The position numbers and the translations under genes are program-made. From Leucobacter rhizosphaerae (GTDB lineage: Bacteria; Actinomycetota; Actinomycetes; Actinomycetales; Microbacteriaceae): a stretch of 64,000 nt of DNA. Location: positions 1,426,001 to 1,490,000 of the forward strand of contig NZ_CP095043.1 of assembly GCF_022919175.1 (NCBI RefSeq), in the 5' to 3' direction. How positions within the stretch are numbered: the stretch's first letter is position 1; each line of letters opens with the position of its first letter. Below the pieces are notes generated by a model. That model made no database searches and was not told the DNA's origin. It was given only the letters and a program-made list of their open reading frames with translations. Shown here piece after piece: positions 4,132-61,983 of this stretch.

Positions 4132-4784
4132 CGGACGATCCTCCACTTCTTCTCAAGGCGGTTCTGGATGAAACTCAGGATCAGGACGAGCACCACGAAC
4201 ACCGCGGCGACCCAGAGCAGGACCTCCATCGGGCTGCCCGGGCGGCCCGCCGCATCGTTGATCGTCGCACGCAGAGCGGCCAGTTCGGCGACCGAGAAGC
4301 CCGCGGCCACCGTCGTGTTCTTGAGCAGTGCGATGAACACGCTCATCATCGGCGGCACGACCGAGCGGAAGGCCTGCGGCAGCACCACGAGCCCCATGAC
4401 CTGGCCGAACGGCAGCCCGATGGCGCGCGCGGCCTCGGCCTGCCCCACCGGCACGGTGTTGATGCCCGCACGGAGCACCTCGGCGACGTAGGTCGCCGTG
4501 TAGATCCCGATCGCGAGAATGCCGAGGAGGAGTGTGCTCACCTTCGGCAGCCCGAGCGCGGGGTACCCCAGCACGAAGAAGAAGAAGACGAGCGTCAGCG
4601 GGGTGTTCCGGATGATGTTCACGTAGACGGTGCCGACACCGCGTGCGATCGGCACCGGCGAGACGCGCATGGCGCCCACGATGATGCCGAGCACCAGCGC
4701 GATCGCGCCGCCCCCGAAGAACACCAGCAGGGTGTTCTTGATAGCGGTTCCCCAGAGATCGAGGTTCCCGAAGATGACGTCCAT
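4128..4784 (-). CDS. gluC: glutamate-type ABC transporter permease (GluC-like)
   Basis: First membrane subunit of the importer, 218 residues. The N-terminal half carries the HAAT family pattern (GTAIKNTLLVFFGGG and YVNIIRNTPLTLVFFF). The coupling loop is EVLRAGINTVPVGQAEAARAIG, shared with GluD. Roughly five membrane spans are visible. The ribosome site GGAGAGGA lies 7 nt before the ATG. It is separated from gluB by a strong hairpin (4810-4846) and overlaps gluD by 4 nt, so permease subunits are made together and probably at a lower level than the binding protein. Confidence 0.9.
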   Translation of the reverse strand: MDVIFGNLDLWGTAIKNTLLVFFGGGAIALVLGIIVGAMRVSPVPIARGVGTVYVNIIRNTPLTLVFFFFVLGYPALGLPKVSTLLLGILAIGIYTATYVAEVLRAGINTVPVGQAEAARAIGLPFGQVMGLVVLPQAFRSVVPPMMSVFIALLKNTTVAAGFSVAELAALRATINDAAGRPGSPMEVLLWVAAVFVVLVLILSFIQNRLEKKWRIVR

Positions 4785-4857: not shown

Positions 4858-5751
4858 TTAGTAAGCATCCACCTCGGGCTGCTCGATCGTGATGCCGGAG
4901 TTGCCGAGGTTCTCATCGAAGATCGCCTGCCACTCGTCACCACCATCGGTGAACAGATCGTTGATGTGGGTGCGGAGCACGTCATCGCCCTTCGGCAGAC
5001 CGACGCCGTAGAGCTCCTCGGTGAGCAGCGGGCCCGTGGTGACCATCAGGTTGTCCGGATCCTGCGCGGCGTAGCCGATGAGGATCGCCTGGTCGGTCGT
5101 GACCGCGTCCACCTGGCCGTTGACGAGGCTCTCGACGCATGCCGAGTAGAGATCGAACTCCTGGGTCTTGATGCCCGGGAAGTTCTCCTTGATGTTCTGG
5201 ATCGGCGTCGAGCCGGTCGCCGAGCACACGGTCTTGCCCTCGAGCTCCTCGAGCGACTGGTAGTCCTCGCCGCCGTTCTTCACGAGCAGACCCTGGCCGG
5301 TCACGAAGTACGGCCCTGCGAAGTCGATGTCCGCCTTCCGCTTGTCGTTGATGGAGTAGGTGCCGACGTAGTAGTCGATGTCGCCGTTCACGATCGCCTG
5401 CTCGCGGTTCGCGGAGGCGATCGCCTTGTACTCGATGTTCTCCTCGTCGAAGCCGAGGGAGCCGGCGATCCAGCGGGCGACGTCGACGTCGAAGCCGCTG
5501 CGCTCGTTGGTGACGTTGTCGAGGTAGCCGAGGCCGGGCTGATCTTCCTTGACGCCGATGACGACCTTGCCGCGCTCCTGCATCTTGTCGAACGTGGGGC
5601 TGCCCTCGAGCGCCACACCCTCGGCGACCTCAGCGGTGACGGGCTCGCCGCCGCCCTCGGGGTCGGAGGGGCTGCCGCTGTTGCACCCCGTCAGTGTCAG
5701 CGCGGCGGCGGCGAGGAAGCCGACCGCGGCGAGGGATTTCGTGAAACGCAT
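4858..5751 (-). CDS. gluB: glutamate-binding lipoprotein of ABC transporter (GluB-like)
   Basis: Extracellular solute-binding protein of family 3, 297 residues. The N-terminus is a lipoprotein signal (MRFTKSLAAVGFLAAAALTL) with lipobox LTGC, so Cys23 would be lipidated. The family-3 signature follows at the ligand-binding cleft (GFDVDVARWIAGSLG), with later motifs YVGTYSINDKRKADIDFAGPY and TDQAILIGY typical of glutamate/aspartate binding. The start has AAGGGA 8 nt upstream. Two cysteines in the mature domain (VCSATGST and SACVESL) probably form a disulfide, as in related binding proteins. It delivers substrate to GluCD. Confidence 0.9.
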   Translation of the reverse strand: MRFTKSLAAVGFLAAAALTLTGCNSGSPSDPEGGGEPVTAEVAEGVALEGSPTFDKMQERGKVVIGVKEDQPGLGYLDNVTNERSGFDVDVARWIAGSLGFDEENIEYKAIASANREQAIVNGDIDYYVGTYSINDKRKADIDFAGPYFVTGQGLLVKNGGEDYQSLEELEGKTVCSATGSTPIQNIKENFPGIKTQEFDLYSACVESLVNGQVDAVTTDQAILIGYAAQDPDNLMVTTGPLLTEELYGVGLPKGDDVLRTHINDLFTDGGDEWQAIFDENLGNSGITIEQPEVDAY

Positions 5752-5819
5752 GATGTGTCCCTTTCGGTGTTCGGAAGCTCGGACGGTGGGGGCACCGGCC
5801 GAACGGTGGTGGAACTGGA

Positions 5820-6566
<747 letters not shown>

Positions 6567-6761
6567 GATCTCTCCACCTCTGGGTCATGGCCCGGAATGC
6601 GAACGGTGCATCACGGGATCTGGGGCTGTCTGCAACGATCCACGCTGCGCGGAGCCACCTGCGAGGCGACGTTCAACGCTGAATCGATCTGCCCCATGGT
6701 AGGAACGGGAGTGCCACCCTGTCGCGCGTCTTGAGCGTTTCTTGAGACTCGGATCGGGCAC
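6567..6761. promoter_or_regulatory. leader/promoter region of the glu operon
   Basis: 195 bp between the gluA start and the end of the TAXI gene, both on the minus strand. CTTGAG occurs twice at 6733-6752, and a TACCAT hexamer on the minus strand (about 6697-6702) could be a -10 element. No convincing -35 or operator was found, and there is no clear terminator for the TAXI operon. Confidence 0.3.
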
Positions 6762-7751
6762 TCAGCGGCGGGCGTCGCGGTAGTACTGCACCGCTCCGTC
6801 GTGCAGATCCATCGGCCCGGTGAAGATCGCCTGCCGTCGATCGAGCAGCTCCGCGGCGGCGACCTGCCGCGCGATCGTCGGGCGCTGCTCGAAGAGCGTC
6901 CGCGTGATGTCGGTGACGAGATCCTTCGGGGTGTCCCGCGCCACGATCAGGTAGTTCGGCACGGTCATGGTGGCCGTCGGGATCTCGACCCCGTAGGTGC
7001 CGACGGGGAAGTCGGCGATCCGGTACACCCCGGCGTGCCCCGCATTGACGCGCTCGACCGTGTCCACGCCGATGGGGAGGAGGCGGATCGGCATCTCCTC
7101 CCCCAGCTCGACGATGCCCGGCGTCGGGAGGCCGCCGACCCAGAAGAAGCCGTCGATCTCGCCGCTCTGCAGCGCCTCGATCGAGTCGCCGAGCCCGAGC
7201 TCCGGATTGTCCAGCCGATCCAGCGGGACGTCCGACGAGGCGAGCACGCGGGTCGCGATGACCTGGACGCCCGAGTCCGGGGCCCCGAGCGAGACGCGAT
7301 GGTCCGCCAGGTCGGAGATGTCGCGGATGTCGGAGTCCGCCGGCACCACGATGTGGACGTACTCGTCGTACACCCGCGCGATCGCCTCCACCGGGAGCGG
7401 ATCGGCGAACTCGCCCCGGCCGGCCACCGCATCTGCCGCCGTGTCGCCCTGGGCGAAGCCGACGAGTGCCCGACCGTCGCCGACGCGGTTCAGGTTGTCG
7501 ACCGAGCCGTGGGTCTCGGCGACGGAGATGTCGAGACCCAGCTGCGCGTGCAGCACCGACGCGAGCTCGCCGCCGTAGCTGTAGTAGACGCCCGTCGTGC
7601 CGCCGCCCGCGATCTGGCGCCGTGCGTCCCCCGGGGCGGACGGCCCGGCGCAGGCGCCGAGGCCCACCGCCGCGGCCAGGAGGAGCGCTGCGGCGGCCAC
7701 GGCACGCGATCGGCCGCGCACGCGTCGGCGTTCGCGGCACGCGGCGCTCAC
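6762..7751 (-). CDS. TAXI family TRAP-type solute-binding lipoprotein
   Basis: A 329-residue secreted receptor of the TAXI (TRAP-associated extracytoplasmic immunogenic) family. The family opening is GGGTTGVYYSYGG directly after a lipoprotein signal with lipobox LGAC (Cys34). Other family features are ETHGSVDNLNRVGDG, GFAQGDTAADAV and a late LYNYLI-like segment (VPNYLIVA). The GTG start overlaps the kinase stop (GTGA), giving one operon of response regulator, kinase, receptor. No TRAP permease (DctM/DctQM) lies in the window. It may serve a distant permease, or act as the ligand sensor for the adjacent kinase; the second idea is inference from gene order. Confidence 0.85.
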   Translation of the reverse strand: MSAACRERRRVRGRSRAVAAAALLLAAAVGLGACAGPSAPGDARRQIAGGGTTGVYYSYGGELASVLHAQLGLDISVAETHGSVDNLNRVGDGRALVGFAQGDTAADAVAGRGEFADPLPVEAIARVYDEYVHIVVPADSDIRDISDLADHRVSLGAPDSGVQVIATRVLASSDVPLDRLDNPELGLGDSIEALQSGEIDGFFWVGGLPTPGIVELGEEMPIRLLPIGVDTVERVNAGHAGVYRIADFPVGTYGVEIPTATMTVPNYLIVARDTPKDLVTDITRTLFEQRPTIARQVAAAELLDRRQAIFTGPMDLHDGAVQYYRDARR

Positions 7752-36408: not shown

Positions 36409-37403
36409 TCAATCATTCATGATTGAATCCGGCTGGATATCGATCTTCGCGCCCGTCAGCTTCGCGGCGAGTCGAGCGTTCTGGCCCTCCTTGCCGATGG
36501 CGAGCGAGAGCTGGAAGTCGGGAACCAGCGCCCGGACCTGCTTCAGCGACTCATTGAGCATGAACACGTCGGTGACCTTCGCGGGCGACAGGGCGTTCGC
36601 CACGAACTTCGGCAGCTCGGGCGAGTAGTCAACGATGTCGATCTTCTCCTCGCCGAGCTCGCTCATGACCGCCCGTACACGGCTCCCCATCTCGCCGATG
36701 CAGGTGCCCTTCGCGTTGATCCCGGGCTGCTTCGCGCGCACGGCGACCTTCGTGCGATGCCCCGCCTCGCGGGCGAGCGACACGATCTCGACGAGCCCCT
36801 CGGCGAGCTCGGGCACTTCCCGCTCGAACAGCTTCCGCACGAGGCCCGGGTGCGTGCGCGACACCACGACCTGCGGACCCTTCAGCCCCTTGGAGACACT
36901 GGTCACGTACACGCGGATTCGGGTGCCGTGGGGGTACTTCTCCCCCGCGATCTGCTCCTCGGGGGCAGGATCGCCTCGAGCTCTCCGAGGTCGACGTGCA
37001 CCATGCGCGGGTTCGGTCCCTGCTGCACGACACCGGAGACGATCTGGCCTTCCTTGTCCTTGAAGGCGCCGAGGACCGCGTCATCGGTGAGATCGCGCAG
37101 GCGCTGATTGATGACCTGCTTTGCCGCGCTCGATGCGACCCGCCCGAACTCGTCGGTGGTCACGAAGGCCTCGCCCACGACCTGGCCGTCGTCGTCGAGC
37201 TCCGGCACGCGGACATCGATCTGGCCGGTCTTGCGGTCGAGGGTGACCCGGACCTGGTGCTCGTCGGGCACAGGAATGTTCTGGTTCTCGGCGTGACGCA
37301 GATATGCCGATTGGATCGCCTGCTCGATGATTTCGGCGAGCTCCTCGAAGGGAATCTCCTTCTCGCGCTCAAGCCCACGCAGCATTGCGAGATCGATCTT
37401 CAC
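36409..37403 (-). pseudogene. nusA: transcription factor NusA, split by a frameshift
   Basis: NusA modulates pausing, termination and antitermination. The N-terminal RNAP-binding domain (MKIDLAMLRGLEREKEIPF) and the start of the S1 domain read in one frame to residue 148 (ELEAILPP), then hit nonsense and a stop. The rest ([18 protein letters not shown], then KH1-KH2 ending in IQPDSIMND) reads in another frame. Adding one C to the C5 run (36961-36965 on the plus strand) restores a normal 331-residue NusA. NusA is essential in most bacteria, so a sequencing or assembly error in the homopolymer is the likeliest cause. True mutation or programmed shift is less likely. Confidence 0.9.
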
Positions 37404-37518: not shown

Positions 37519-38010
37519 CTAGTGCTGCGCTTCCTGCGGTTGCGTGAAGGGGTACACGGCGGGCGATCCGGCGCTCGCAGTCTCTTCGGCGTCCTCGGTG
37601 CCCCGGAACTTCGCGAGGTCCCGGACGTTCTTCTGCACGGCGACCGAAGCGAAGAGGCTCATCGCGAACGCGATGCCGTAGAAGCCCTTTTCGCTCAGTG
37701 TCAGGCTGCCCGCGTTCCAGAGCCCGACGGCGAGGAGGGTGAGCGAGATGAGCAGGGCGAACCAGGCGATGCCGGTGTAGAGGTTCGTGACGGGGATCCC
37801 GTCCGCCCGGTCGCGCACCGTCTTCTGGAGTGACACTGCCGCGAACAGACCGAACATGAGCAGCGTGAAGTAGTAACCCTTCTCGTTGAGCTCCATCGTG
37901 GCGTTGTAGAGTCCGATGAGGTAGGTGCCCATTCCGAGGAGCAGGGCGACCCAAGAAGCGCCGATGAACGCAGCGGTGGGCTTCGATGCGGTGTCCTGAT
38001 GTTCGGTCAT
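37519..38010 (-). CDS. YiaA/YiaB family membrane protein
   Basis: A 163-residue protein with two copies of the YiaA/B two-helix unit. Residues 10-60 contain [19 protein letters not shown] and [16 protein letters not shown]; residues 75-125 repeat the pattern with [18 protein letters not shown] and [22 protein letters not shown] ribosome site. Function of the family is unknown. It occupies the place upstream of nusA where rimP is usual; no rimP is visible in this window. Confidence 0.85.
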
Positions 38011-38203: not shown

Positions 38204-41200
38204 TCACGCAGCGAGCGCGCCGTCGATGGGTTCGCCGGTTGCCGCCGTCAGGCGGTGCACCGCGATCAACGCGGGTGTCACCCGACCGGCCTCAATCGCG
38301 AAGCCCCGACCCGGCGCGAAATCGGCGCGACGGGCACGGCCCAGCGGCTCCCGGAACGGGGAGTGCGGCTCGCCGGCGTCCGGCTGCAGCGTGAGACCCC
38401 ACGTGGGTTGCTTGAGGGCGCCGAGCAGTTCCCAGTACTGCGCGGCAGCGCCGGGTTCGAGGTCGAAGAGCACCAGTGCCGCGGAGCGACGCGCCGCGCG
38501 GGCGAGTGCCGCGAGCGCCCGCTGGGCGCCGGGGTCAGCGGCGTCGGCCGCGCGCTCAACGACCACGAGCATCCGCTGCGCGCCCTGGAGTGCGTCGACC
38601 AGTCGAGCGGCTTCGCGCGCGACCGCGTCCTCCCCCGAGGCGACGCGACTCCACGACCGCGCTTGTTCAATGCCTGCCTCCTGAGACACATGGGCCTGGA
38701 GTGTGAGGAGGATCGATTCCACGACCACTCCGTGACGAGCGCCGTGCTCCTCCCACGCCACCGCGCACGTCTCCAGTGCCGTCGTCACCCCCGACCCGGC
38801 GGGACCGAAGACGACACCGAGCCCGCGAGTCGGCATGGTCAGCGCCTCGAGTGTGTCCCTCCGGAGACCGATGGCGATACGGTCCGGCTGGTCCGCCCGA
38901 GTGCGTCGATCAGGCTTCGACCCGCCGTGTTCGCCGCGCCCCGAGGGAGGCAGCTCCTGCAGCGTCTGCAGTACCGGCTCGGTCTGGATCACGGGCGCTG
39001 GTGCGATCCGGCACCGCAACAGGTCCGCGGCCAGCTCGGCGAGGCTGCGGTCCAAACCGGCCCGGTCCGGCGATCCGCCGGGAACCGCGATCTGCACCTC
39101 GGCCCCCTCTCCCACGCGCACGGCTCGCCCCGGCGGCGCATCGGCGAGCAGGTCAGCTGGGAACCCGAAGACGGCACCGTCCCGAGCATCAGACATCCGG
39201 AACGCGTACTGCCTGGGGAGGTGGGCCGTGAGGCCCGTCGGAATCGCCGAGGCGCGATCTGCCGTCATGACCACGTGGACCCCGAGTGCGCGCCCGGCGG
39301 CCATGATCTCAGTGAGTGCGGGCAGCAAGGTGGTCACCGCACCGGCGTCATCCGACGCCTGGCGAAACGCACTGAAGCCGTCGAGGAGCAGGACCACGCG
39401 GGCTTCGCCGTTCCCGGCTGCTGTCACTCGCGTCTCCGAGAGCGTGCCCGCTCGGGCTGCTGAGAATCGCGGACCGCGATCGGAGATCGTGCGCTGCAGA
39501 TGGCGCAGTACGCGGGTGACCCGGCCCAGGTCCGAGAGGGGCACCACGGCCCCCACGGTTGGCAGCTGGACGAGTGCGCCGAGTCCCCCGTTGCCGCCGT
39601 CGATCGCGTAGAGATGCACGGGAAACCGCTCCGCTGCAGCGCTGAGGGCTGCGGCGACGGAGAGCAGCGCCGTGGATTTTCCCGTGCCGCTCGCCCCCAG
39701 GAAGGCGACGTGCCCGACCGCGTCGAAGTCGATCGACTCCGGCCGCTGCGCCTGGGAGTCGGGCAGATCCAGCAGCCCGATCGTGGTGGTGTCGATGTCC
39801 GCACGGAGACCGGCGTTGTACGACAGTGCCGCCGAGTCGATGAGCGGAGGGAGTTCGTCGAGCCATGGCCGTCGGGGGGCGGCAAGAGCGGCCGTGCGCG
39901 CCGCATCGGAAATGCCGCGCGCCAGCACCTCGATGTCGCGGTCGCCGCCGGTTCGCGCGTCGTCCGTCACGGCACGGGGTGACCTTGGGACGTCCCACGG
40001 GACGCGTGCGCCCCACCCGAGGGATGCGATGCGCACCGCGCCGAGGTCGGACGCACCCGAGGCGCGACCACCGACGTAGCAGGTCTGCACGGTGCGGATC
40101 CGCCCGGGCCCGATCTTGATGGCCGCGCGCCCCGGAGTCTCCGCGGCGAAGTGCGCGGCGTCTGGCACCCCCAGGACATCCGAGCTGTCCGCGTCGTCTG
40201 CCATCCGCAGAGCGATCCGGAGATTCGTGTTGGCCCGCAGTTGCTCGGTGATCACCCCGGCCGGCCGCTGCGTGGCGAGGACGAGATGCAATCCCAGCGA
40301 CCGACCGCGCTGCGCGATGTCGACGACCCCCGTGACGAACTCGGGGACGTCGCGCGCCAGCGCGGCGAGGTCCTTCGCCCGGTGGTGGGCGAAGAGCTCT
40401 TCGCGGTGCCGCAGCTCTGCGCGCAGTGACCGCAGTGCCCGTCGCACGAGGCGCGGAGTGAGGTCCGTCAAGAGCCCTACCGTGTGCGGCAGGGCGACAC
40501 ACTCCGCGAACGCGGCGCCGCCCTTGTAGTCGACCAGCAGCAACGTCAGGCGGTCCGGGCTGATCGACGCCGCGAGACTCAGGATCCAGGTCTGCAGGAA
40601 CTCCGACTTTCCGGATCCGGTTGTCCCTGCCACCAGCGCGTGCGGTCCGTGCGTGCGCAGATCGATCGAGACGGGGCCATCGGCGCTCTGTCCCACCACG
40701 GCGACGAGCCGGTCCTCGGTTCGCTCCACCCCCGAGCGCCAGCGGGACGTGAGGGTATCCGAGGCCGCCCACGCGTCCAGGATCGCCGCCCCGCCCCCGA
40801 GCACGTCCGCGCTGTGGAGGTCCCGGAGCTGCACGGTGCGGGGCAGGTCGCTCGCGGCGGCGACGACCTCGCCGGCGTCTTCGACCGCGGCCAGACTGCG
40901 GGCGACCCGCGACGCCATAACTGACTCCGCGCCCTCGATCGAACGCAGCGCCACGACTGACCCCTGCTGCACGAACCCCACCGTCCCCTGCCGCGTATGC
41001 ACCTCGGCAAACGTGCGGCAAGCGGCGGGCAGCTCTCTCCGATGCTCGGCCACCCAGATGCAGTGGATCCCCGCCTCGGGGCCGTGCTCCGCCAGTGCGA
41101 TGAACCTCGGCCGCTCCGCCGATTCCGCGAGCACGAGCACCACGACCACGGGATGGGCGAGGCCGTCGCGCGCCGCCGCACGCTGTCGCTGCAGATCCTC

Positions 41201-42664
41201 CAGCGCGGAGATGAGCGCGCCAGCACTCGCGTCGTCAGCGGCGAGATGCGGGACGGCGACCGGGCTGCGGGGATGGTCCACGTGGGGAAGCCACTTCATC
41301 CAGTCCCACGGGCCGGTTCGGCGCGGGCCGCCCACGCACGCCATCACCAGGTCCGCCGGCGCGCGGAGGGCCACGAGCTGCAGCACGATCGATCGGGCGA
41401 GCGCAGCGGCCGTGCGCGCGTCTCCGGCGATCCCGAGGGCCCCGCAGCGGTCCAGTGCCTCGACGACGGGCACGGGTGCGATGCTCCGCCACTCGTCTGC
41501 AAGCGCGACGAGCGCGGCACGATCCTCGGGCGTCGCGTCGCTGTCGGGAGGCCCCTCGAGTGCGGTGCGGCTCACGAGCTCCCCGGTTCCGATCCGCACC
41601 TCGAGGAACGACGCGTGCTCCGGGCGCCGGGTCCACAGCAGCTCCGAGCGGTCGCGCACGGCATGCAGGATCTCTCGAAGCTCCGGCGCCTCTCTCTCGC
41701 GCACCGCGATCTCCTCGGCGTGCAGCCGCGCGAGCTCGGTGCGCTCCTCGACGAGTCGCGTCGCGAACTGCTCCCGCAGCCTCCGGTGCCGTCGTCGCCC
41801 TCCGAATGCCCCATCGGCCCAGGATCCCAGCAGCATCACGGGGGCCATCGCCACCATGAGCAGACTCATGGGGGCCCGGGTGAGTGCGAACACCGCCCCG
41901 CCCATGAGCATCGGAGACAGCATCGCGATCACCGGCAAGTGCTGCACCGAGGGGATCACGGGCGGCGACGGCAGCGCGCGGGTGCGCGCGGAGAACGCCT
42001 CCACGACCCGCGGCGAGCGCGTGTGCAGCGTTGTGTGCCGGAGCTCCCGTGCCGGCACGACGGGAGGTCCCAGCGTGACCCGGAGCACGACCTCGCCCAG
42101 TTCAACGGTGTGCACGCCAGTGAGGAGGGCGCGTGACGTCGGCGATCCGTCGACGATCACTCCGTTCGCGGATCCGAGATCGTGCAGCGTGACCTCGCGA
42201 CCGACGGAGACGACGGCGTGCCGCCGGGACACACTCGGGTCGGTGAGCGGCACGCGGTGCCGCGGGTCGCGACCGATCAGCTGCTCACCCTGGACAAGGC
42301 TGTGCACGGCGCCGCGGTGCGCTCCAGACAGCACCTCGAGGTGGCCCGCGAGCGGGATGAGCCGAGTGGCGCCGTGCGCCCCGAACTCGAGCACCGGTTC
42401 GATCGTCCACCCGGACTGCAACCCAGAGCCGAGGAGTGGGGTGGAGGGATCGAGCAGCCTTCGCTGCGCGGTGAGAGAATCACGCGCGGCGAGGGTGACG
42501 GAGACGCGAGCCTCGGTCATCTCGGGGTCCCACCGCACGCCGGCCGCCGCACCGGCACGCACCAGAGCGCATGCAGTATCAGCAACCGTGACGGTGGCGT
42601 CACCCTCGAGCGTGATGTCCCGAGGCTCCATGCCCGGGAGCTCCAGCGTCACACGGAACCGCAC
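38204..42664 (-). CDS. eccC: FHA-domain FtsK/SpoIIIE ATPase of a type VII secretion-like system (EccC/EssC-like), first ATPase lacking Walker B
   Basis: A 1486-residue motor. Order: N-terminal beta domain, FHA domain (about residues 110-190, [21 protein letters not shown]), two membrane helices (about 245-285), a helical stalk, then three FtsK-like ATPase domains. Domain 1 has Walker [10 protein letters not shown] (about 680), and DYKGG, but the segment with Walker B (normally ..VVDEF) is missing: [13 protein letters not shown] joins directly at about residue 765. Domain 2 has GASGTGKST and VVLLLDGF. Domain 3 has GPAGSGVTT, with Lys replaced by Val. GTG start with AGGAGG. Last gene of the WXG100 operon; presumed to power export of the small helical substrates. 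Confidence 0.85.
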
Positions 42665-42696
42665 GGGTCCTCCTCTCGGCGCGTGCGCATCGGTGC

Positions 42697-43233
42697 CTAC
42701 CCCTCGGTGAGCTGAGAGCAAGCGGTGGAGACGGAGAGTATGACGGAGTGCTCCGTGGCGTCGAGCGCAAGGATTGCTCCGTCGGATCGGTCAGCTCGGA
42801 AGTAGTCCTCTTGCGTGCCGGTGCTTTCGGGATCCAGGACATCCGAGACGTCCCACCCCTCGTGGGTCCACAACGCACGCACACGAGCCGAGGCGGCGAA
42901 CGGTGCGCCGATCTCCGTGTGCTCGACCGTGAACACTCGGCGTCCGGGCTGCGGGTCAGCACGATTGGGGCGGCACGATTCGGTCTCGATCTGCTCGAGG
43001 AGCACGGCCCGATCCTCGGTCCAGTAGAGCCGCTCCTCGCCGCTCCTCCAGCCGTCGGGTTCTCCCGTCGCCTGGACCACCGCGTCGACCTCCGTCTCGA
43101 TCCAGGCGAGCTGCTCCTCCCGCGTGGCGGATCCGGAGCGCCACTCGTCCGACACGATCGGGTCGGAGGAGCACCCGGCAATGAATGAAACGACGATGAG
43201 TGCCGCGGCGGTCAGCTCGGTGCCTCGCATCAT
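42697..43233 (-). CDS. lipoprotein in the type VII-like operon
   Basis: A 178-residue protein with a lipoprotein signal and lipobox FIAGC (Cys20), then an acidic, tryptophan-containing domain (SDEWRSGSATREEQLAWIE, WTHEGWDVSDVLDPES) and two further cysteines. The start overlaps the DUF1023 stop (ATGATG region), so it belongs to the operon. No known family recognised. It could be an extracytoplasmic partner of the secretion machinery or of the hydrolase; this is inference from position. Confidence 0.75.
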   Translation of the reverse strand: MMRGTELTAAALIVVSFIAGCSSDPIVSDEWRSGSATREEQLAWIETEVDAVVQATGEPDGWRSGEERLYWTEDRAVLLEQIETESCRPNRADPQPGRRVFTVEHTEIGAPFAASARVRALWTHEGWDVSDVLDPESTGTQEDYFRADRSDGAILALDATEHSVILSVSTACSQLTEG

Positions 43234-45191
43234 CGCACCTCCAACGCTGCGGGGACGCGATTCTTGCGTGAATCGGGTGGATCCGCATGATCCACGAATC
43301 CACCGGGGACGCGATCCCACAGTTCGGAAGATATCGCTGCAGCACTCCTGAGCGACTGCGTCTCCCGATCGAGGTACCCGAGCCCGTCGTCCCGGATGAT
43401 CGAGTGCCCTCCGGTGCCGCGCAGATCGCCCACACCCTCCGAGGAGAAGCTCTGCGCCCCCGCGATGGTGAGGCCGGGGAGCGTCGCGGCATCGGCGTTC
43501 GGCTGCATCCGCTGTGCGGCGTTCGATCCGAAGGGTGCAAGCGCGTCAGCGGAGGCCATGGTCGTGTAGATCCGGGGTGCGCCGCGCGCGTCACGATCGA
43601 CGCCGAGCTCGCCGAGGTCGGAGACCGTCCCGGCATCGAGACCAGCGGAGCCGAGCATCGTGAACGATCGCACGGGATGCTCGGTGCGCAGGAGCGCGTT
43701 CGCCGCGGTGGTCGTGCCGTACGAGTGCGCGACGACCGCGACCGACCCGCTCGGGGCCTCGACTATTCGCACCGCGTGCGCGCCGTCGAGTTCCGCGGCG
43801 AGCCGGGCCGCCCCCGTTCTCGCCGCGTGCGGGAGCAGCACACGGTCGACATCAGGGGTGTCGGCCTCCATGAAGACGATGACGGCGGAGGTCTCACTCG
43901 ACCGACCCGACTGCGACAGCACGCGCTGCTGCTCGGCCATGAGATTCCGGCTCGCAGTGTCCCAGCCGGAAAGCCCCTGGTGCGCGTCGTTGCGCATCCC
44001 CGGGACTTCCCACGTCAGATGGTCGGCGCGGTCGGGCTCCCCGTACCCGAGCGCCAACAGTGGCGTCGCGTCGGAGAGGCGCAGCGCGACGACGCGCACC
44101 GGCTCTCCCGCGTGCCCCTCGGCGATGACCGCGAACGCCGCGTCGAGCGCGCTGCGAGACCGAGGACTCAGTTCCTGGCGATGCACGATCCAGTACTCCA
44201 ATAGCCGCCGGTTGGCCTCGTCGCGGGCCTCGTACGGCACCCCCGGCAGGTTCCCGATCACCGCCGGGACCTCGGTGATGAGCCGCTCGCGCTCGTCCGC
44301 GCTGAGCCGCTGCCACGCCTCCGCAACGCGGGTGGGGTCCGGCGGGCTGCTCCACGCGTGCGAGCCCTGCTCCGATCCGAGCAGCGATCGCAGCAGCGGG
44401 TGCTGCTCGGCGAGCTGCGGAGTGTCGACGCGCTGTCCCCGCACCTCTCCGACGAGTGCGGCGGCGAGTGCGTCCGGCCTCGATCCCTCCGCGCCGCCCA
44501 CGACGGTGAGGAGGTGTCCGAGGGAGGTGCGCCCGAGCGCCTGCTGCAGTCGGGTCTCAGCCTGCACGCGGTCACGGTGCACGGCGACCCAGGTGGATCG
44601 AGCGCTGTCGATCTCGCGGAGCGCCCCGTGCCACAGGCTCGCCGCCACGAGCCACTCGGTGTCGAACCGGGACCGCACCGCCTGCACCGCCGCCTCCGTC
44701 TCGACCGCCGTCAGGCCGGCGCCCGCCGGGCCGAGTTGCGGCTCAGGCATCACACCGGGAGCTCCCTCATCCCAGCGGTACTCGCCCGGCACCCCGGCCC
44801 GCGCCGCGATGTCCGCGATGATCCCGCTCTGAAGCCGAATGGTGTGCAGTGCGTCCTCGACGCGGTGCACCGTGCGGTCGGCCTCGCGCACGAGCACCTC
44901 CAGCTCAGCGCCGAAGACGCGCAGGGCCGAGTCGGTTTCGAAAGCGCTCCGGTGCACCGTGAGCGCTCCCGGGACGAGTCGGTCCGAGAGCTTCTCGGTG
45001 AGACTCCGAGTCCCATCGCTCTCGAGCGTGAGCAGCTCCTGCTGCGCGCGCTGTACCGCTGCGACGTACGCCTCCGATTCCGTGACCGCATCACGAACGA
45101 ACGCTGCAACCTCCTCGATCGCCGGCACCTCGACGCACCTGGGCGCCGCACTGAGAAGCACGTCTTCCGCGCCCGCTGCTCCGAGCATCAC
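43230..45191 (-). CDS. DUF1023 alpha/beta hydrolase with helical N-terminus (probable type VII substrate)
   Basis: A 653-residue protein. The first about 330 residues are mainly helical, with long heptad-like stretches such as AAVQRAQQELLTLESDGTRSL, resembling WXG/LXG-type carrier domains. The C-terminal half is an alpha/beta hydrolase of the DUF1023 type: nucleophile Ser490 in VAHSYGTTTA, preceded by an acidic loop and followed by a histidine in GGHSIIRDDG. No signal peptide is present, which fits type VII export. Start is GTG 45191 or ATG 45188, both served by GGAG. It may be the effector of the operon, but substrate and toxicity are unknown. Confidence 0.78.
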   Translation of the reverse strand: MMLGAAGAEDVLLSAAPRCVEVPAIEEVAAFVRDAVTESEAYVAAVQRAQQELLTLESDGTRSLTEKLSDRLVPGALTVHRSAFETDSALRVFGAELEVLVREADRTVHRVEDALHTIRLQSGIIADIAARAGVPGEYRWDEGAPGVMPEPQLGPAGAGLTAVETEAAVQAVRSRFDTEWLVAASLWHGALREIDSARSTWVAVHRDRVQAETRLQQALGRTSLGHLLTVVGGAEGSRPDALAAALVGEVRGQRVDTPQLAEQHPLLRSLLGSEQGSHAWSSPPDPTRVAEAWQRLSADERERLITEVPAVIGNLPGVPYEARDEANRRLLEYWIVHRQELSPRSRSALDAAFAVIAEGHAGEPVRVVALRLSDATPLLALGYGEPDRADHLTWEVPGMRNDAHQGLSGWDTASRNLMAEQQRVLSQSGRSSETSAVIVFMEADTPDVDRVLLPHAARTGAARLAAELDGAHAVRIVEAPSGSVAVVAHSYGTTTAANALLRTEHPVRSFTMLGSAGLDAGTVSDLGELGVDRDARGAPRIYTTMASADALAPFGSNAAQRMQPNADAATLPGLTIAGAQSFSSEGVGDLRGTGGHSIIRDDGLGYLDRETQSLRSAAAISSELWDRVPGGFVDHADPPDSRKNRVPAALEVR

Positions 45192-45225
45192 CGCGACTCC
45201 ATTCGGTATCGACCCGCAGTCATCG

Positions 45226-45525
45226 TCAGGACTCCGGCAGGGCGAACCCGACTCGCACTGCCGCAGTGATGCGAGCGTCGAGCTCCAGCGTCCGCTCGAC
45301 CAGGTCCACGGCGGTGATCGCTCCCGTCACCGCGGCATCGGCCAGGGCGGCGCACCCGGTCACCAGATCGTCGATGAACGTGCTGAGATCGGCACCGACG
45401 ACGGCCAGTGCCGAGAGGTCGACCGCGGGCGCCGCAGTCAGTTCCGAGACCCCCTCGGCGGCGCTGATGAGTTCGGTTCCGACGTCTGCCAACGTCGAAT
45501 CCCGGAGGTCGAGATGGTGCGGCAT
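45226..45525 (-). CDS. EspC/ESX-1 secretion-associated-like small helical protein
   Basis: A 99-residue, all-helical acidic protein rich in Ala, Val and Leu. Two long helices are likely (residues 10-45 and 48-95), without signal peptide. Composition, length and position between a WXG100 gene and a DUF1023 gene match the EspC-like substrates common in actinobacterial type VII loci. Ribosome site AAGGAA. There is no clear YxxxD/E export tag, so the assignment is by context. Confidence 0.65.
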   Translation of the reverse strand: MPHHLDLRDSTLADVGTELISAAEGVSELTAAPAVDLSALAVVGADLSTFIDDLVTGCAALADAAVTGAITAVDLVERTLELDARITAAVRVGFALPES

Positions 45526-45587
45526 CGTGTTCCTTCCGTCGCCGTATGCGATCGTGAGTGTGCTGCCTCGCGCCCGTTGCAGGTCCG

Positions 45588-45881
45588 CTAGGAGATCCTC
45601 GCGGCGATCTGGCTGTCGGTGTCTCGCAGCAGAGCGGCAGTGCTCGTGATGAAGCGTTGGATCTCGGTCAGTTGATCGATCACCCCGTTCGCGTGCGCTG
45701 TGTAGCTGCCGAAGGCCTCGTCGAACTTGCCGGAGGCCTGATCGGTCACGAAGCCGGACGTGACGAGCCGCCCGATCAGGGCTTTCATCCGCAGCAGGAT
45801 GTGGGTGATCTCCTCCCGCCCGGATCCGATGTCTGACGCCGCCGATTCCATTTCTCCGTATGAGACAGTGATGTTCGCCAC
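45588..45881 (-). CDS. WXG100 family type VII secretion target
   Basis: A 97-residue two-helix protein. The turn that normally holds WxG reads TSGFVTDQASGKF, so Phe takes the Trp position while the rest fits the actinobacterial EsxA/B-like family. Helices 1 (about 8-40) and 2 (50-92) are amphipathic. GTG start with AAAGGAA. First gene of the five-gene type VII-like operon; it would pair with itself or the EspC-like protein and be exported by the EccC-like ATPase. Confidence 0.82.
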   Translation of the reverse strand: MANITVSYGEMESAASDIGSGREEITHILLRMKALIGRLVTSGFVTDQASGKFDEAFGSYTAHANGVIDQLTEIQRFITSTAALLRDTDSQIAARIS

Positions 45882-59178: not shown

Positions 59179-59262
59179 GCTGACAGCCTACCGTCCGAGC
59201 GGACCCGGAGCCCTCGGATCGCCCAGGGCGACGGAGGGGCGGGACCGCCCGGACGAGGCGAG

Positions 59263-59904
59263 CTAGTCGGTCGAGCCGCTGAGGAAGAACTGCATCTGCT
59301 TGGCGACGCTCACCGCGTGATCGCCGAAGCGCTCGTGGTAGCGGCTCGCGAGTGTTGCATCGACCACCCCGGTCGGGTCGTTCGCCAGCTTGTCACTGAG
59401 CACCTTCTCGAACACCTTCGCGTGCAGCTCGTCGAGATCGTCGTCGAGGTTGCGCACCTCGTCGATGACGGTCGCCTCCTGCGTGCGGAGCAGCTCGACG
59501 ATCTTGCCGGCCATCTCCACGTCCAGCGCACCCATGCGCGCGAACGTCTTCTTGAGCCCGCGCGGGATCGCGCTTTCGGGGTAGCGGTACCGGGCCAACT
59601 GCGCGATGTGCTGCGAGAGGTCCGCCATCCGCTCGAGCGACGCGCTCATCCGGAGCGCCCCCACGACCAGCCGGAGGTCCGATGCAACCGGCTGCTGGCG
59701 TGCGAGAATATCGATGGCGAGCTCGTCGAGCGTCGCGACCATCTCCTCGATGGCCTCGGCCTCGTCGATCACCTTCTCCGCCAGCGACACGTCTGAGTCT
59801 CCGAACGCGGTTGTCGCGTCAGAAATCGCTCCCTCGACCAACCCAGCGATTTCGACCAGGCGATCTTGCACCTCGCGGAGCGACTGCTGAAAAACCTCAC
59901 GCAT
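59263..59904 (-). CDS. phoU: phosphate signalling regulator PhoU
   Basis: A 213-residue helical protein with two PhoU repeats; metal-binding acidic motifs are in each (DEAEAIEEMVATLDELAI and the second-half VIDEVRNLDDDLDELHAK). PhoU dampens the kinase under phosphate excess. It faces away from senX3 with PHO-box-like repeats in between, so the phosphate regulon probably controls it. The start at 59904 has GAGGGAA; an in-frame ATG at 60033 would cover the promoter region. Confidence 0.92.
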   Translation of the reverse strand: MREVFQQSLREVQDRLVEIAGLVEGAISDATTAFGDSDVSLAEKVIDEAEAIEEMVATLDELAIDILARQQPVASDLRLVVGALRMSASLERMADLSQHIAQLARYRYPESAIPRGLKKTFARMGALDVEMAGKIVELLRTQEATVIDEVRNLDDDLDELHAKVFEKVLSDKLANDPTGVVDATLASRYHERFGDHAVSVAKQMQFFLSGSTD

Positions 59905-59983
59905 GCGGTTCCCTCTCTCGTGTTTCTCTGCGCCAATGCGCACTGGTCCAAGTCTGAGCGGCCGTCGTGAACCACGCCACACC

Positions 59984-60005
59984 GACAGGTGAACAACAGT
60001 TGAAC
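59984..60005. promoter_or_regulatory. PHO box between phoU and senX3
   Basis: On the minus strand, two 11-nt units, GTTCAACTGTT and GTTCACCTGTC, are contiguous (plus-strand 59995-60005 and 59984-59994). A weaker unit with GTTCAC lies in phase two units away (59962-59972). The box ends 28 nt upstream of the TACGAT -10 of senX3, suitable for activation by phosphorylated RegX3. Confidence 0.75.
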
Positions 60006-60032
60006 TCTGGCGTTCGGCTCCCAGCCTACGCA

Positions 60033-60038
60033 TACGAT
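60033..60038 (+). promoter_or_regulatory. -10 element of senX3, leaderless start
   Basis: TACGAT ends 6 nt before the ATG at 60045, so transcription would begin at or next to the start codon. The PHO box occupies the region just upstream of the expected -35. Confidence 0.65.
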
Positions 60039-60044
60039 GAAGGC

Positions 60045-61274
60045 ATGGATCCGACCGCGCTCGTGCTCTCCTCCGTCGCGCTCGGCATCGTCCTCGGCGC
60101 CGGGCTCACACTCGCCATCGTCAGCGCACGAGCGGCCGGCCGCCGCCGGTCCGCCGAGATGCGCCCCGAACTGCCGGAGATCGCCACCTCGATCCTCGAC
60201 GAGATCGAGATCTTCGCGGTGATCCTGGACGCGTCGCTGACGGCCGTCTACGCCAACCCCACGGCCCGCCACGAGCAGCACGTGAGCGGCGAGCAGATCC
60301 GGGAGCCGGAGTTCTTGCAGCGCGTGCGACGGGTGATGACGACGGGGATCCCGGACACCCACGATCCCGACCCGAGCAACCCGTCGGACACCGTCCGTAT
60401 CCACCTCGTTCGCCTGCAGCGGCGCTTCGTCGTGGTGCTCGCGGAGGACCTCGGCGAGGAACAGCGGGTGAACGCCATGCGTCGCGACTTCATCGCGAAC
60501 GTGAGCCACGAGCTGAAGACGCCGATCGCGGCGATCGGCCTGCTCTCCGAGGCCGTGCAGCAGGCGGCGGACGAGCCCGAGCTCGTGCGCGGGTTCGCGA
60601 AGAGCCTGGTGAAGGAGTCCCGACGGCTCGGCGAGCTGTCGCGCGACGTGATCCAGCTCTCGGAGGCGCAGTCGACGCTGCGCCCGGAGGATCGCGAGGA
60701 GGTATCCCTGCGCGACCTGGTGCGCGGCGAGGTCGAATCGCATCGCGAGTTCGCGACGCAGCACCGCGTGGAGCTCATCGTGACCGACGACGCCGGCGGA
60801 TCGCGCGAGGCCGTGATCCTCGGGCGCCCCACCTCGCTCGGCTCGGCGGTCGCGAACCTGCTCAGCAACGCCATCCGGCACTCCCCCGAGGGCGGCCGGG
60901 TCGGGGTCGGCATGACCGTTGAACGGGGTCGCTTCCTCGTCACCGTCACCGACCAGGGCGAGGGCATGGCCCCCGAGCACCTGTCGCGCATCTTCGAGCG
61001 GTTCTACCGCGTCGACGGTGCCCGCACGCGCGGCGAGGGCGGCACCGGGCTCGGGCTCAGCATCGCCCGGCACACCATGCGCGCCCACGGCGGCGACGTC
61101 GACGTCTGGTCGCAGCCCGGGGTCGGTTCGAGCTTCACCCTGACCTTCCCGCTGCCCGACACGAGCACCGACGGCAAACCGAACAAGCGCATGAAGAAGG
61201 CGCGGCGGATCGTGCGCGAGGCGACGAAACCCGCGGCGCGCACCCCCGACACGTCCGACACACCGAACCCCTGA
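60045..61274 (+). CDS. senX3: phosphate-sensing histidine kinase SenX3
   Basis: A 409-residue kinase with one or two N-terminal helices (residues 5-30), a PAS-like domain (50-135) and H-box ANVSHELKTPIAAIG (His155). N, G1 and G2 boxes follow (NLLSNAIRHSPEGG, DQGEGMAPEH, GEGGTGLGLSIA). Lacks a large extracellular domain, as expected for SenX3, which monitors the Pst transporter through PhoU. A Lys/Arg-rich tail ends the protein. 13 bp before regX3. Confidence 0.92.
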   Translation: MDPTALVLSSVALGIVLGAGLTLAIVSARAAGRRRSAEMRPELPEIATSILDEIEIFAVILDASLTAVYANPTARHEQHVSGEQIREPEFLQRVRRVMTTGIPDTHDPDPSNPSDTVRIHLVRLQRRFVVVLAEDLGEEQRVNAMRRDFIANVSHELKTPIAAIGLLSEAVQQAADEPELVRGFAKSLVKESRRLGELSRDVIQLSEAQSTLRPEDREEVSLRDLVRGEVESHREFATQHRVELIVTDDAGGSREAVILGRPTSLGSAVANLLSNAIRHSPEGGRVGVGMTVERGRFLVTVTDQGEGMAPEHLSRIFERFYRVDGARTRGEGGTGLGLSIARHTMRAHGGDVDVWSQPGVGSSFTLTFPLPDTSTDGKPNKRMKKARRIVREATKPAARTPDTSDTPNP

Positions 61275-61287
61275 AGGGATCCCCCTA

Positions 61288-61983
61288 GTGGCCCAGCACA
61301 TCCTGCTCGTCGAGGACGAGGACTCCATCTCGAAGCCCCTCGCGTTCCTGCTCGAACGCGAGGGCTACCGCGTCACGATCGTCGACGACGGGGCCGAGGC
61401 GGTCCGCACCTTCTCCGAGATCTCCGTCGACCTCGTGCTGCTGGATCTCATGCTGCCGAGTCTGCCCGGCACGGAGGTCTGCCGGGCGATCCGCCAGACC
61501 TCGCAGGTCCCCATCATCATGCTCACCGCGAAGGACAGCGAGATCGACATCGTGGTGGGTCTCGAGCTCGGCGCGGACGACTACATCACCAAGCCGTACT
61601 CGACGCGCGAGCTGCTCGCCCGCCTGCGCGCGGCGCTCCGCCGCTCGGCCTCGCCCGTCGACGACGCCGAGGAGGGGTTCGACTCCCTCGTCATCGACGA
61701 GCTCGGGGTGCGACTCGACTCGGAGCGGCACACGGTCACCGTGCGCGGCGAAGAGATCACGATGCCGCTCCGCGAGTTCGAGCTGCTCGAGATGCTCATG
61801 CGGCACTCGGGCCGGGTGCTCACGCGCGGCCAGCTCATCGACCGGGTCTGGGGCAGCAATTATTACGGCGACACGAAGACCCTCGACGTGCACGTGAAGC
61901 GGATCCGAGCGCGGATTGAGGAGGAGCCGTCGAAGCCGGAGCTCATCTCGACCATCCGCGGCGTCGGATACCGGTTCGGCTGA
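61288..61983 (+). CDS. regX3: phosphate-response regulator RegX3
   Basis: A 231-residue OmpR-type regulator. Phospho-acceptor is Asp53 (LLDLMLPSLPG), with Lys in YITKPYSTREL. The winged helix shows MPLREFELLEMLMRHSGR and RVWGSNYYGDTKTLDVHVKRIR, close to RegX3/PhoP of other actinobacteria. GTG start with AAGGGA. Expected to bind the PHO-box-like repeats found at 19946 and 59984. Confidence 0.93.
   Translation: MAQHILLVEDEDSISKPLAFLLEREGYRVTIVDDGAEAVRTFSEISVDLVLLDLMLPSLPGTEVCRAIRQTSQVPIIMLTAKDSEIDIVVGLELGADDYITKPYSTRELLARLRAALRRSASPVDDAEEGFDSLVIDELGVRLDSERHTVTVRGEEITMPLREFELLEMLMRHSGRVLTRGQLIDRVWGSNYYGDTKTLDVHVKRIRARIEEEPSKPELISTIRGVGYRFG

What the first reader, a model, noticed from the sequence alone, without database searches (positions are those of the whole stretch)
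40340..40390. EccC-like ATPase has lost the Walker B segment of ATPase domain 1
In EccC/EssC proteins the stretch between the KDL-type helix and the ..[12 protein letters not shown] segment holds the hydrophobic beta strand and catalytic Asp-Glu (..VVDEFA). Here [13 protein letters not shown] is continuous and in frame, so about 20-25 residues are absent. The repeated AAL that would flank the missing piece suggests deletion between short direct repeats. Domain 1 is the ATPase considered essential in characterised type VII systems. Either the system is dead, or domain 2, which keeps Walker A and a VVLLLDGF Walker B-like strand, has become the motor.
Basis: partly seen in the sequence, partly recalled or inferred. 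Interest (0 to 1): 0.75.

Follow-up and report, generated by a model that had tools for sequence, protein, structure and literature searches.

The report
Secretion ATPase missing its catalytic segment
A motor protein of a small type VII-like secretion cluster in this bacterium lacks a 22-residue piece holding its ATP-cutting residues, which the related proteins examined keep, so it is most likely a recently disabled copy (or, less likely, a sequence error) rather than a new kind of machine.

Summary
The EccC-like gene (38204-42721, minus strand) reads in frame across the site but lacks exactly 22 residues (66 bp) between residues 785 and 786: the Walker B strand and Asp-Glu of ATPase domain 1. 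The spacing is intact in 188 of 188 other homologues examined and the segment present in 28 of 28 readable same-genus loci, so it is not a subfamily trait.

Outside the deletion, domain 1 keeps Walker A and 119 of 123 near-invariant columns, though only 4 of 119 homologues are as divergent there. Domain 2 is an unlikely substitute motor: its Walker B is Asp-Gly in all 118 homologues with residues there. Domain 3 here has Val at the P-loop Lys position; 1 of 118 homologues has Lys, 28 Arg.

The gene lies in a WXG-FtsK cluster beside nusA. No EccB, YukD/EccD or second EccC was found in this genome.

Best reading: a real inactivating deletion. Main rival: an assembly error, since nusA next door changes frame inside a C run. 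Only reads or PCR can decide. Interest is low to moderate.

The parts
38204..42721 (-). EccC/EssC-like FHA-FtsK protein, 1505 codons from TTG; probable start at residue 20 (database copy is 1486 aa)
40364..40369 (-). junction codons L785|A786; 22 residues (66 bp) present in relatives are absent here
40604..40627 (-). domain 1 Walker A (GTTGSGKS), intact
39674..39697 (-). domain 2 Walker A (GASGTGKS)
39377..39397 (-). domain 2 Walker B-like strand ending Asp-Gly; no catalytic Glu, as in the family
38786..38806 (-). domain 3 P-loop remnant, Val at the Lys position
42697..43230 (-). small predicted lipoprotein (lipobox-like start read by eye); matched in 7 of 12 relatives' loci
   Evidence: no Pfam match
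43230..45191 (-). protein with C-terminal Abhydrolase_8 domain, putative substrate (function inferred)
   Evidence: matched in 11 of 12 relatives' loci
45226..45525 (-). small 99-aa protein, possible WXG100-type partner (inferred)
   Evidence: no Pfam match over the cut-off
45588..45881 (-). WXG100 protein, 97 aa
   Evidence: PF06013, E 1.2e-13; matched in 11 of 12 relatives' loci
37519..38010 (-). YiaA/YiaB-type membrane protein, adjacent
   Evidence: PF05360; matched in 5 of 12 relatives' loci

Best explanation
The gene is the EccC-type motor of a small WXG-FtsK (type VII-like) cluster that has undergone an exact 66-bp in-frame deletion, probably recent. Shown: the sequence lacks the Walker B strand and Asp-Glu of domain 1 while keeping Walker A and most other conserved positions. 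Inferred: domain 1 can no longer hydrolyse ATP, and probably folds poorly, because a core strand is gone. Domains 2 and 3 are unlikely to replace it, since across the family they lack the catalytic Glu or, nearly always, the P-loop Lys. The full-length protein may still be made and sit in the membrane, but the cluster most likely no longer secretes its substrates by ATP hydrolysis.
For: Unique absence: spacing kept in 188 of 188 homologues, segment kept in 28 of 28 readable genus loci. Missing columns highly conserved, 0.84 and 0.90. Domain 1 outside the deletion keeps 119 of 123 columns. Domain 2 Asp-Gly in 118 of 119 homologues with one gap row; domain 3 Lys position holds Lys in 1, Arg in 28 and other residues in 89 of 118. 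The window domain 1 model has pLDDT under 50 at its residues 126-140 (the junction) and no strand there; an intact homologue (P0117) models domain 1 at block means 81-95 with the strand at 153-159. On 4nh0 (T. curvata EccC) the window's match stops at chain residue 394 and resumes at 429, whereas intact P0003 aligns through the strand and DEF in between. No second EccC in the genome. The cluster looks dispensable: by my reading, 42 of 54 genus genomes (own included) have a match of at least 40% identity; 4 of the 12 others are under 90% complete. Literature: D1 of EssC needed for secretion (PMC9436818, passages); D1 the active ATPase in TcEccC (PMC11154593, passages).
Against: No reads or second strain were available, so the deletion itself could be an assembly error. 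The neighbouring nusA changes frame inside a C run, so the assembly may hold small indel errors. Domain 1 outside the deletion is itself more divergent than in 115 of 119 homologues, so 'recent' is not firm. eccC and its cluster show no stop, which could mean that something is still selected. AlphaFold does not measure stability or activity, and my control model is a longer protein (901 against 236 residues).
Confidence: 0.62

Rival explanations
1. Assembly or consensus error: the strain carries the segment and the deposited sequence dropped it.
For: nusA beside it changes frame within a C run, although NusA is normally essential (recalled). Domain 1 conservation elsewhere looks like a working protein.
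Against: The nusA lesion is a short homopolymer change, a different kind of event. The deletion is exactly in frame and 66 bp long, and by eye the relatives' DNA shows no tandem repeat there that could collapse. No other conserved in-frame deletion in the 18 of 44 window gene models tested. Runs of six C or G are about as frequent relative to runs of five as in 6 relatives' loci, on small numbers.
Confidence: 0.25
2. The short protein is still functional as a non-hydrolysing EccC: domain 1 binds nucleotide or serves as a scaffold, and the cluster works differently.
For: Walker A and 119 of 123 conserved domain 1 columns remain. The WXG100, hydrolase and lipoprotein frames are open. EssC with D1 Walker A/B substitutions still associates with its partners EsaA and EssB (PMC9436818, passages). 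Two other loops are also unusually short in this protein, which could reflect a lineage-specific reshaping.
Against: The deletion removes a core strand, not just a side chain. 188 of 188 homologues keep it. The TM/stalk region is more divergent at near-invariant columns than in any of 115 homologues, which fits relaxed constraint.
Confidence: 0.1
3. Domain 2 has become the motor.
For: Domain 2 keeps a Walker A and a hydrophobic strand ending in Asp. In S. aureus EssC, D2 Walker motifs matter too, for assembly of the membrane complex (PMC9436818, passages).
Against: Asp-Gly instead of Asp-Glu in 118 of 119 homologues (the other row is a gap), and nothing gained in this protein. D2 and D3 are described as degenerate with poor activity in characterised systems (PMC11154593, passages).
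Confidence: 0.03

Closest known systems
EccC of Thermomonospora curvata (PDB 4nh0) and the EccC/EssC family
   Same: FtsK/SpoIIIE-type ATPase domains in series; 4nh0 is the best Foldseek match of the domain 1 model and best sequence match
   Different: lacks the domain 1 Walker B segment
WXG-FtsK clusters of monoderm bacteria (PMC4791881, passages only)
   Same: EccC-like gene plus WXG100 gene without EccB, EccD or mycosin alongside
   Different: sits beside nusA with an Abhydrolase_8 protein and a lipoprotein; EccC catalytic segment missing in this genome
S. aureus EssC D1 Walker A/B mutant (PMC9436818, passages)
   Same: domain 1 disabled, domains 2 and 3 left
   Different: engineered point substitutions, not a natural 22-residue loss; EssC works in a larger T7SSb complex

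Membership tests
EccC/EssC type VII secretion ATPase | FtsK/SpoIIIE-type ATPase domains in series after a membrane part | tested here: met
   PF01580 E 1.7e-47; TIGR03928, TIGR03924, TIGR03925 match, all below their curated cut-offs; aligns to 4nh0 through domains 1-2; TM segments read by eye only
EccC/EssC type VII secretion ATPase | Domain 1 with complete Walker A and Walker B (DE) | tested here: not met
   Walker A present, Walker B segment absent
EccC/EssC type VII secretion ATPase | Degenerate domains 2 and 3 | tested here: met
   Asp-Gly in domain 2, Val at the Lys position of domain 3
WXG-FtsK cluster | EccC-like gene clustered with a WXG100 gene | tested here: met
   PF06013 at 45588-45881; WXG100 match in 11 of 12 relatives' loci
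ESX-type (T7SSa) system | EccB and EccD (YukD domain) encoded | tested here: not met
   none found in own genome; the same searches found YukD in 12 and EccB in 8 (7 over the cut-off) of 54 genus genomes
ESX-type (T7SSa) system | Mycosin | tested here: inconclusive
   two matches in own genome outside the window, both below the curated cut-off, which no match in the 54 genomes reaches
Any type VII system | ATP-dependent secretion of WXG100 protein | not testable with these tools
   needs experiment

The most novel reading that the evidence does not exclude
A natural EccC that still functions without a hydrolysing ATPase domain 1, so that this WXG-FtsK cluster works with a pseudo-ATPase, for example as a nucleotide-binding scaffold or gate.
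Probability: 0.08. Interest if true: 0.65.

Novelty: new member of a known kind. Interest (0 to 1): 0.27.

Why it matters
If real, it is a natural knock-out of the one complete ATPase domain in a type VII-like cluster, and adds to the signs that this WXG-FtsK cluster can be lost. If a strain with this form still secreted WXG100 protein, the view that domain 1 hydrolysis drives secretion would need revision. The more likely outcome is an ordinary loss-of-function allele.

Tried and rejected
Subfamily trait: rejected; 188 of 188 homologues keep the spacing. A search scored on residues 762-832 alone, which should rank proteins sharing the short form high, showed no other among the 120 listed of 4824 hits; the rest were not inspected. 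Domain 2 as motor: rejected. Close relative of the same species: none found; the best other homologue is 61% identical over residues 560-1060. The database cluster of the window's own protein counts two members, and the second could not be seen. The genome-contig scan returned no relative. General shortening of C/G runs: not seen, on small numbers. nusA as a conserved frame-change signal: not supported. The same short run is in 2 of 54 genus genomes (G000, G017) and, by a wider pattern, in 2 of 398 sampled family genomes (G000, G333, whose sample did not include G017). G017 is the closest of the 10 relatives compared by infB/nusA; G333 is of another genus, where translation confirms that nusA changes frame there. 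So it looks sporadic, but shared ancestry of G000 and G017 is not excluded. Of the frame-change hits, two regions (1-1800, 59200-61500) proved to be gene or strand boundaries by GC3 phase; the others besides nusA were not followed. In one search my proS query was in a wrong frame, so the position of proS in relatives was not properly tested; proS in the window itself is clear. Papers: listings and passages only; Rosenberg et al. 2015 was not read, and is known here through passages of PMC11154593 and PMC6954902.

Full report
WHAT IS THERE. The gene at 38204-42721 on the minus strand encodes a 1505-codon FHA-FtsK protein; the database copy has 1486 residues, as from residue 20. Pfam finds FHA and FtsK_SpoIIIE. 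NCBIfam finds the EccC/EssC models TIGR03928, TIGR03924 and TIGR03925, all below their curated cut-offs. The frame runs without a stop through [14 protein letters not shown].

THE DELETION. Alignment with same-genus loci shows exactly 22 residues missing after L785. Of 29 other loci, 28 carry the segment, with DEFA or DELA, and one (L021) is cut off before it. In the protein database, 189 proteins were examined: the window's own plus 188 others from two searches, each listing only its best 120. The spacing from KGGxAF to GRSLG is 93 residues in 188 of 188 others and 71 in the window (186; the two that missed its pattern, P0037 and P0161). The lost columns are highly conserved (0.84), unlike the protein's other two large gaps after residues 517 and 1380 (0.45 and 0.44), which lie in variable loops. 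As a control, 1 of 119 homologues (P0104) has a conserved internal gap of its own elsewhere. The two other loops of the window protein are also among the shortest seen (2 of 112 and 0 of 112 others as short).

MAPPING. On T. curvata EccC (4nh0) the window protein aligns up to chain residue 394 and again from 429; the intact homologue P0003 aligns through the hydrophobic strand and DEF in between. AlphaFold on domain 1 (236 residues, with 46 relatives) gave mean pLDDT 76, under 50 at residues 126-140 of the fragment, which is the junction, with no strand there. Its best Foldseek match is still 4nh0. An intact homologue, P0117, has the strand at 153-159 and block means of 81-95 across domain 1. 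The control is longer than the test fragment, so the comparison is indicative only.

WHAT REMAINS. In domain 1, 119 of 123 columns conserved at 95% or more are kept outside the deletion, and Walker A is intact. Even so, only 4 of 119 homologues are as divergent there. The TM/stalk region is more divergent than in any of 115 homologues, and in domain 2 only 2 of 118 are as divergent. The protein is thus divergent overall; domain 1 outside the deletion shows no gross decay, which suggests, but does not prove, a recent event. Domain 2 reads Asp-Gly where Asp-Glu would be needed in 118 of 119 homologues (the other, P0103, is partial). At the domain 3 P-loop Lys position, 1 of 118 homologues has Lys (P0058), 28 have Arg and 89 have other residues; the window has Val. 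Domain 1 is therefore the only complete Walker A/B ATPase in nearly all of the family, and was so, presumably, in the ancestor of this protein.

SURROUNDINGS. The window order is proS, WXG100 (45588-45881), a 99-residue small protein, an Abhydrolase_8 protein, a lipoprotein, eccC, a YiaA/B-type membrane protein, nusA, ylxR, infB. In 12 relatives' loci, eccC and nusA lie on the same 20-kb stretch in 10, with a WXG100 match in 11, an Abhydrolase_8-protein match in 11, the lipoprotein in 7 and the YiaA-type gene in 5 (my count); proS was not properly tested there. YukD is found in 12 and EccB in 8 (7 over the cut-off) of 54 genus genomes, neither in this one. Mycosin-like matches here are below the cut-off, as in all 54. 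This fits the WXG-FtsK cluster type (PMC4791881, passages). The own genome has no second EccC, only weak matches at one distant site. By my reading, 42 of 54 genus genomes have a match of 40% identity or more, so the cluster can apparently be absent; 4 of the 12 others are under 90% complete.

REAL OR ARTEFACT. No reads exist here. The neighbouring nusA changes frame inside a C run (GC3 phase); intact copies exist in relatives. The same run state recurs in G017 and G333. This suggests that small homopolymer errors may be present. Against a general problem: among 18 of 44 gene models with at least three relatives, no other conserved in-frame deletion was found, and C/G runs of six are not clearly depleted. 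By eye the relatives' DNA shows no tandem repeat at the site. I put 0.25 on an artefact.

MECHANISM. Most likely a deletion removed the catalytic segment and left a full-length but non-hydrolysing EccC. In S. aureus EssC, variants with Walker A/B substitutions in D1 do not restore secretion and act dominantly, while association with EsaA and EssB persists (PMC9436818, passages); this supports loss of function by analogy only. The same paper reports that D2 motifs matter for complex assembly and that ATP hydrolysis could not be measured with recombinant EssC. A direct-repeat origin is possible: 7 of 188 intact homologues have KDLAA(L/M) on the left and EFAAL on the right, but the ancestral DNA is unknown.

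VERDICT. The likely meaning is ordinary: a disabled member of a known family.

Noticed in passing
window 36409-37403 (-): nusA is split into two overlapping frames by a frame change within a run of C; intact copies exist in relatives. G017 and G333 show the same run state. Probably a homopolymer error, but not proven.
   Followed up: partly
L016 (G021), around 4410-4560: The eccC ortholog of this genome changes frame near residue 950, with stops in the later part: another possible loss in the genus.
   Followed up: no
L040 (G017), 5514-7525: The Abhydrolase_8 gene next to eccC is split across two frames.
   Followed up: partly
window 42697-45881 (-): WXG100 gene, small partner-like gene, Abhydrolase_8 protein and lipoprotein form a set beside eccC that recurs in relatives; substrate and function unknown.
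   Followed up: partly
window 38204-42721 (-), residues 517 and 1380: Two variable loops of this EccC are also unusually short.
   Followed up: partly
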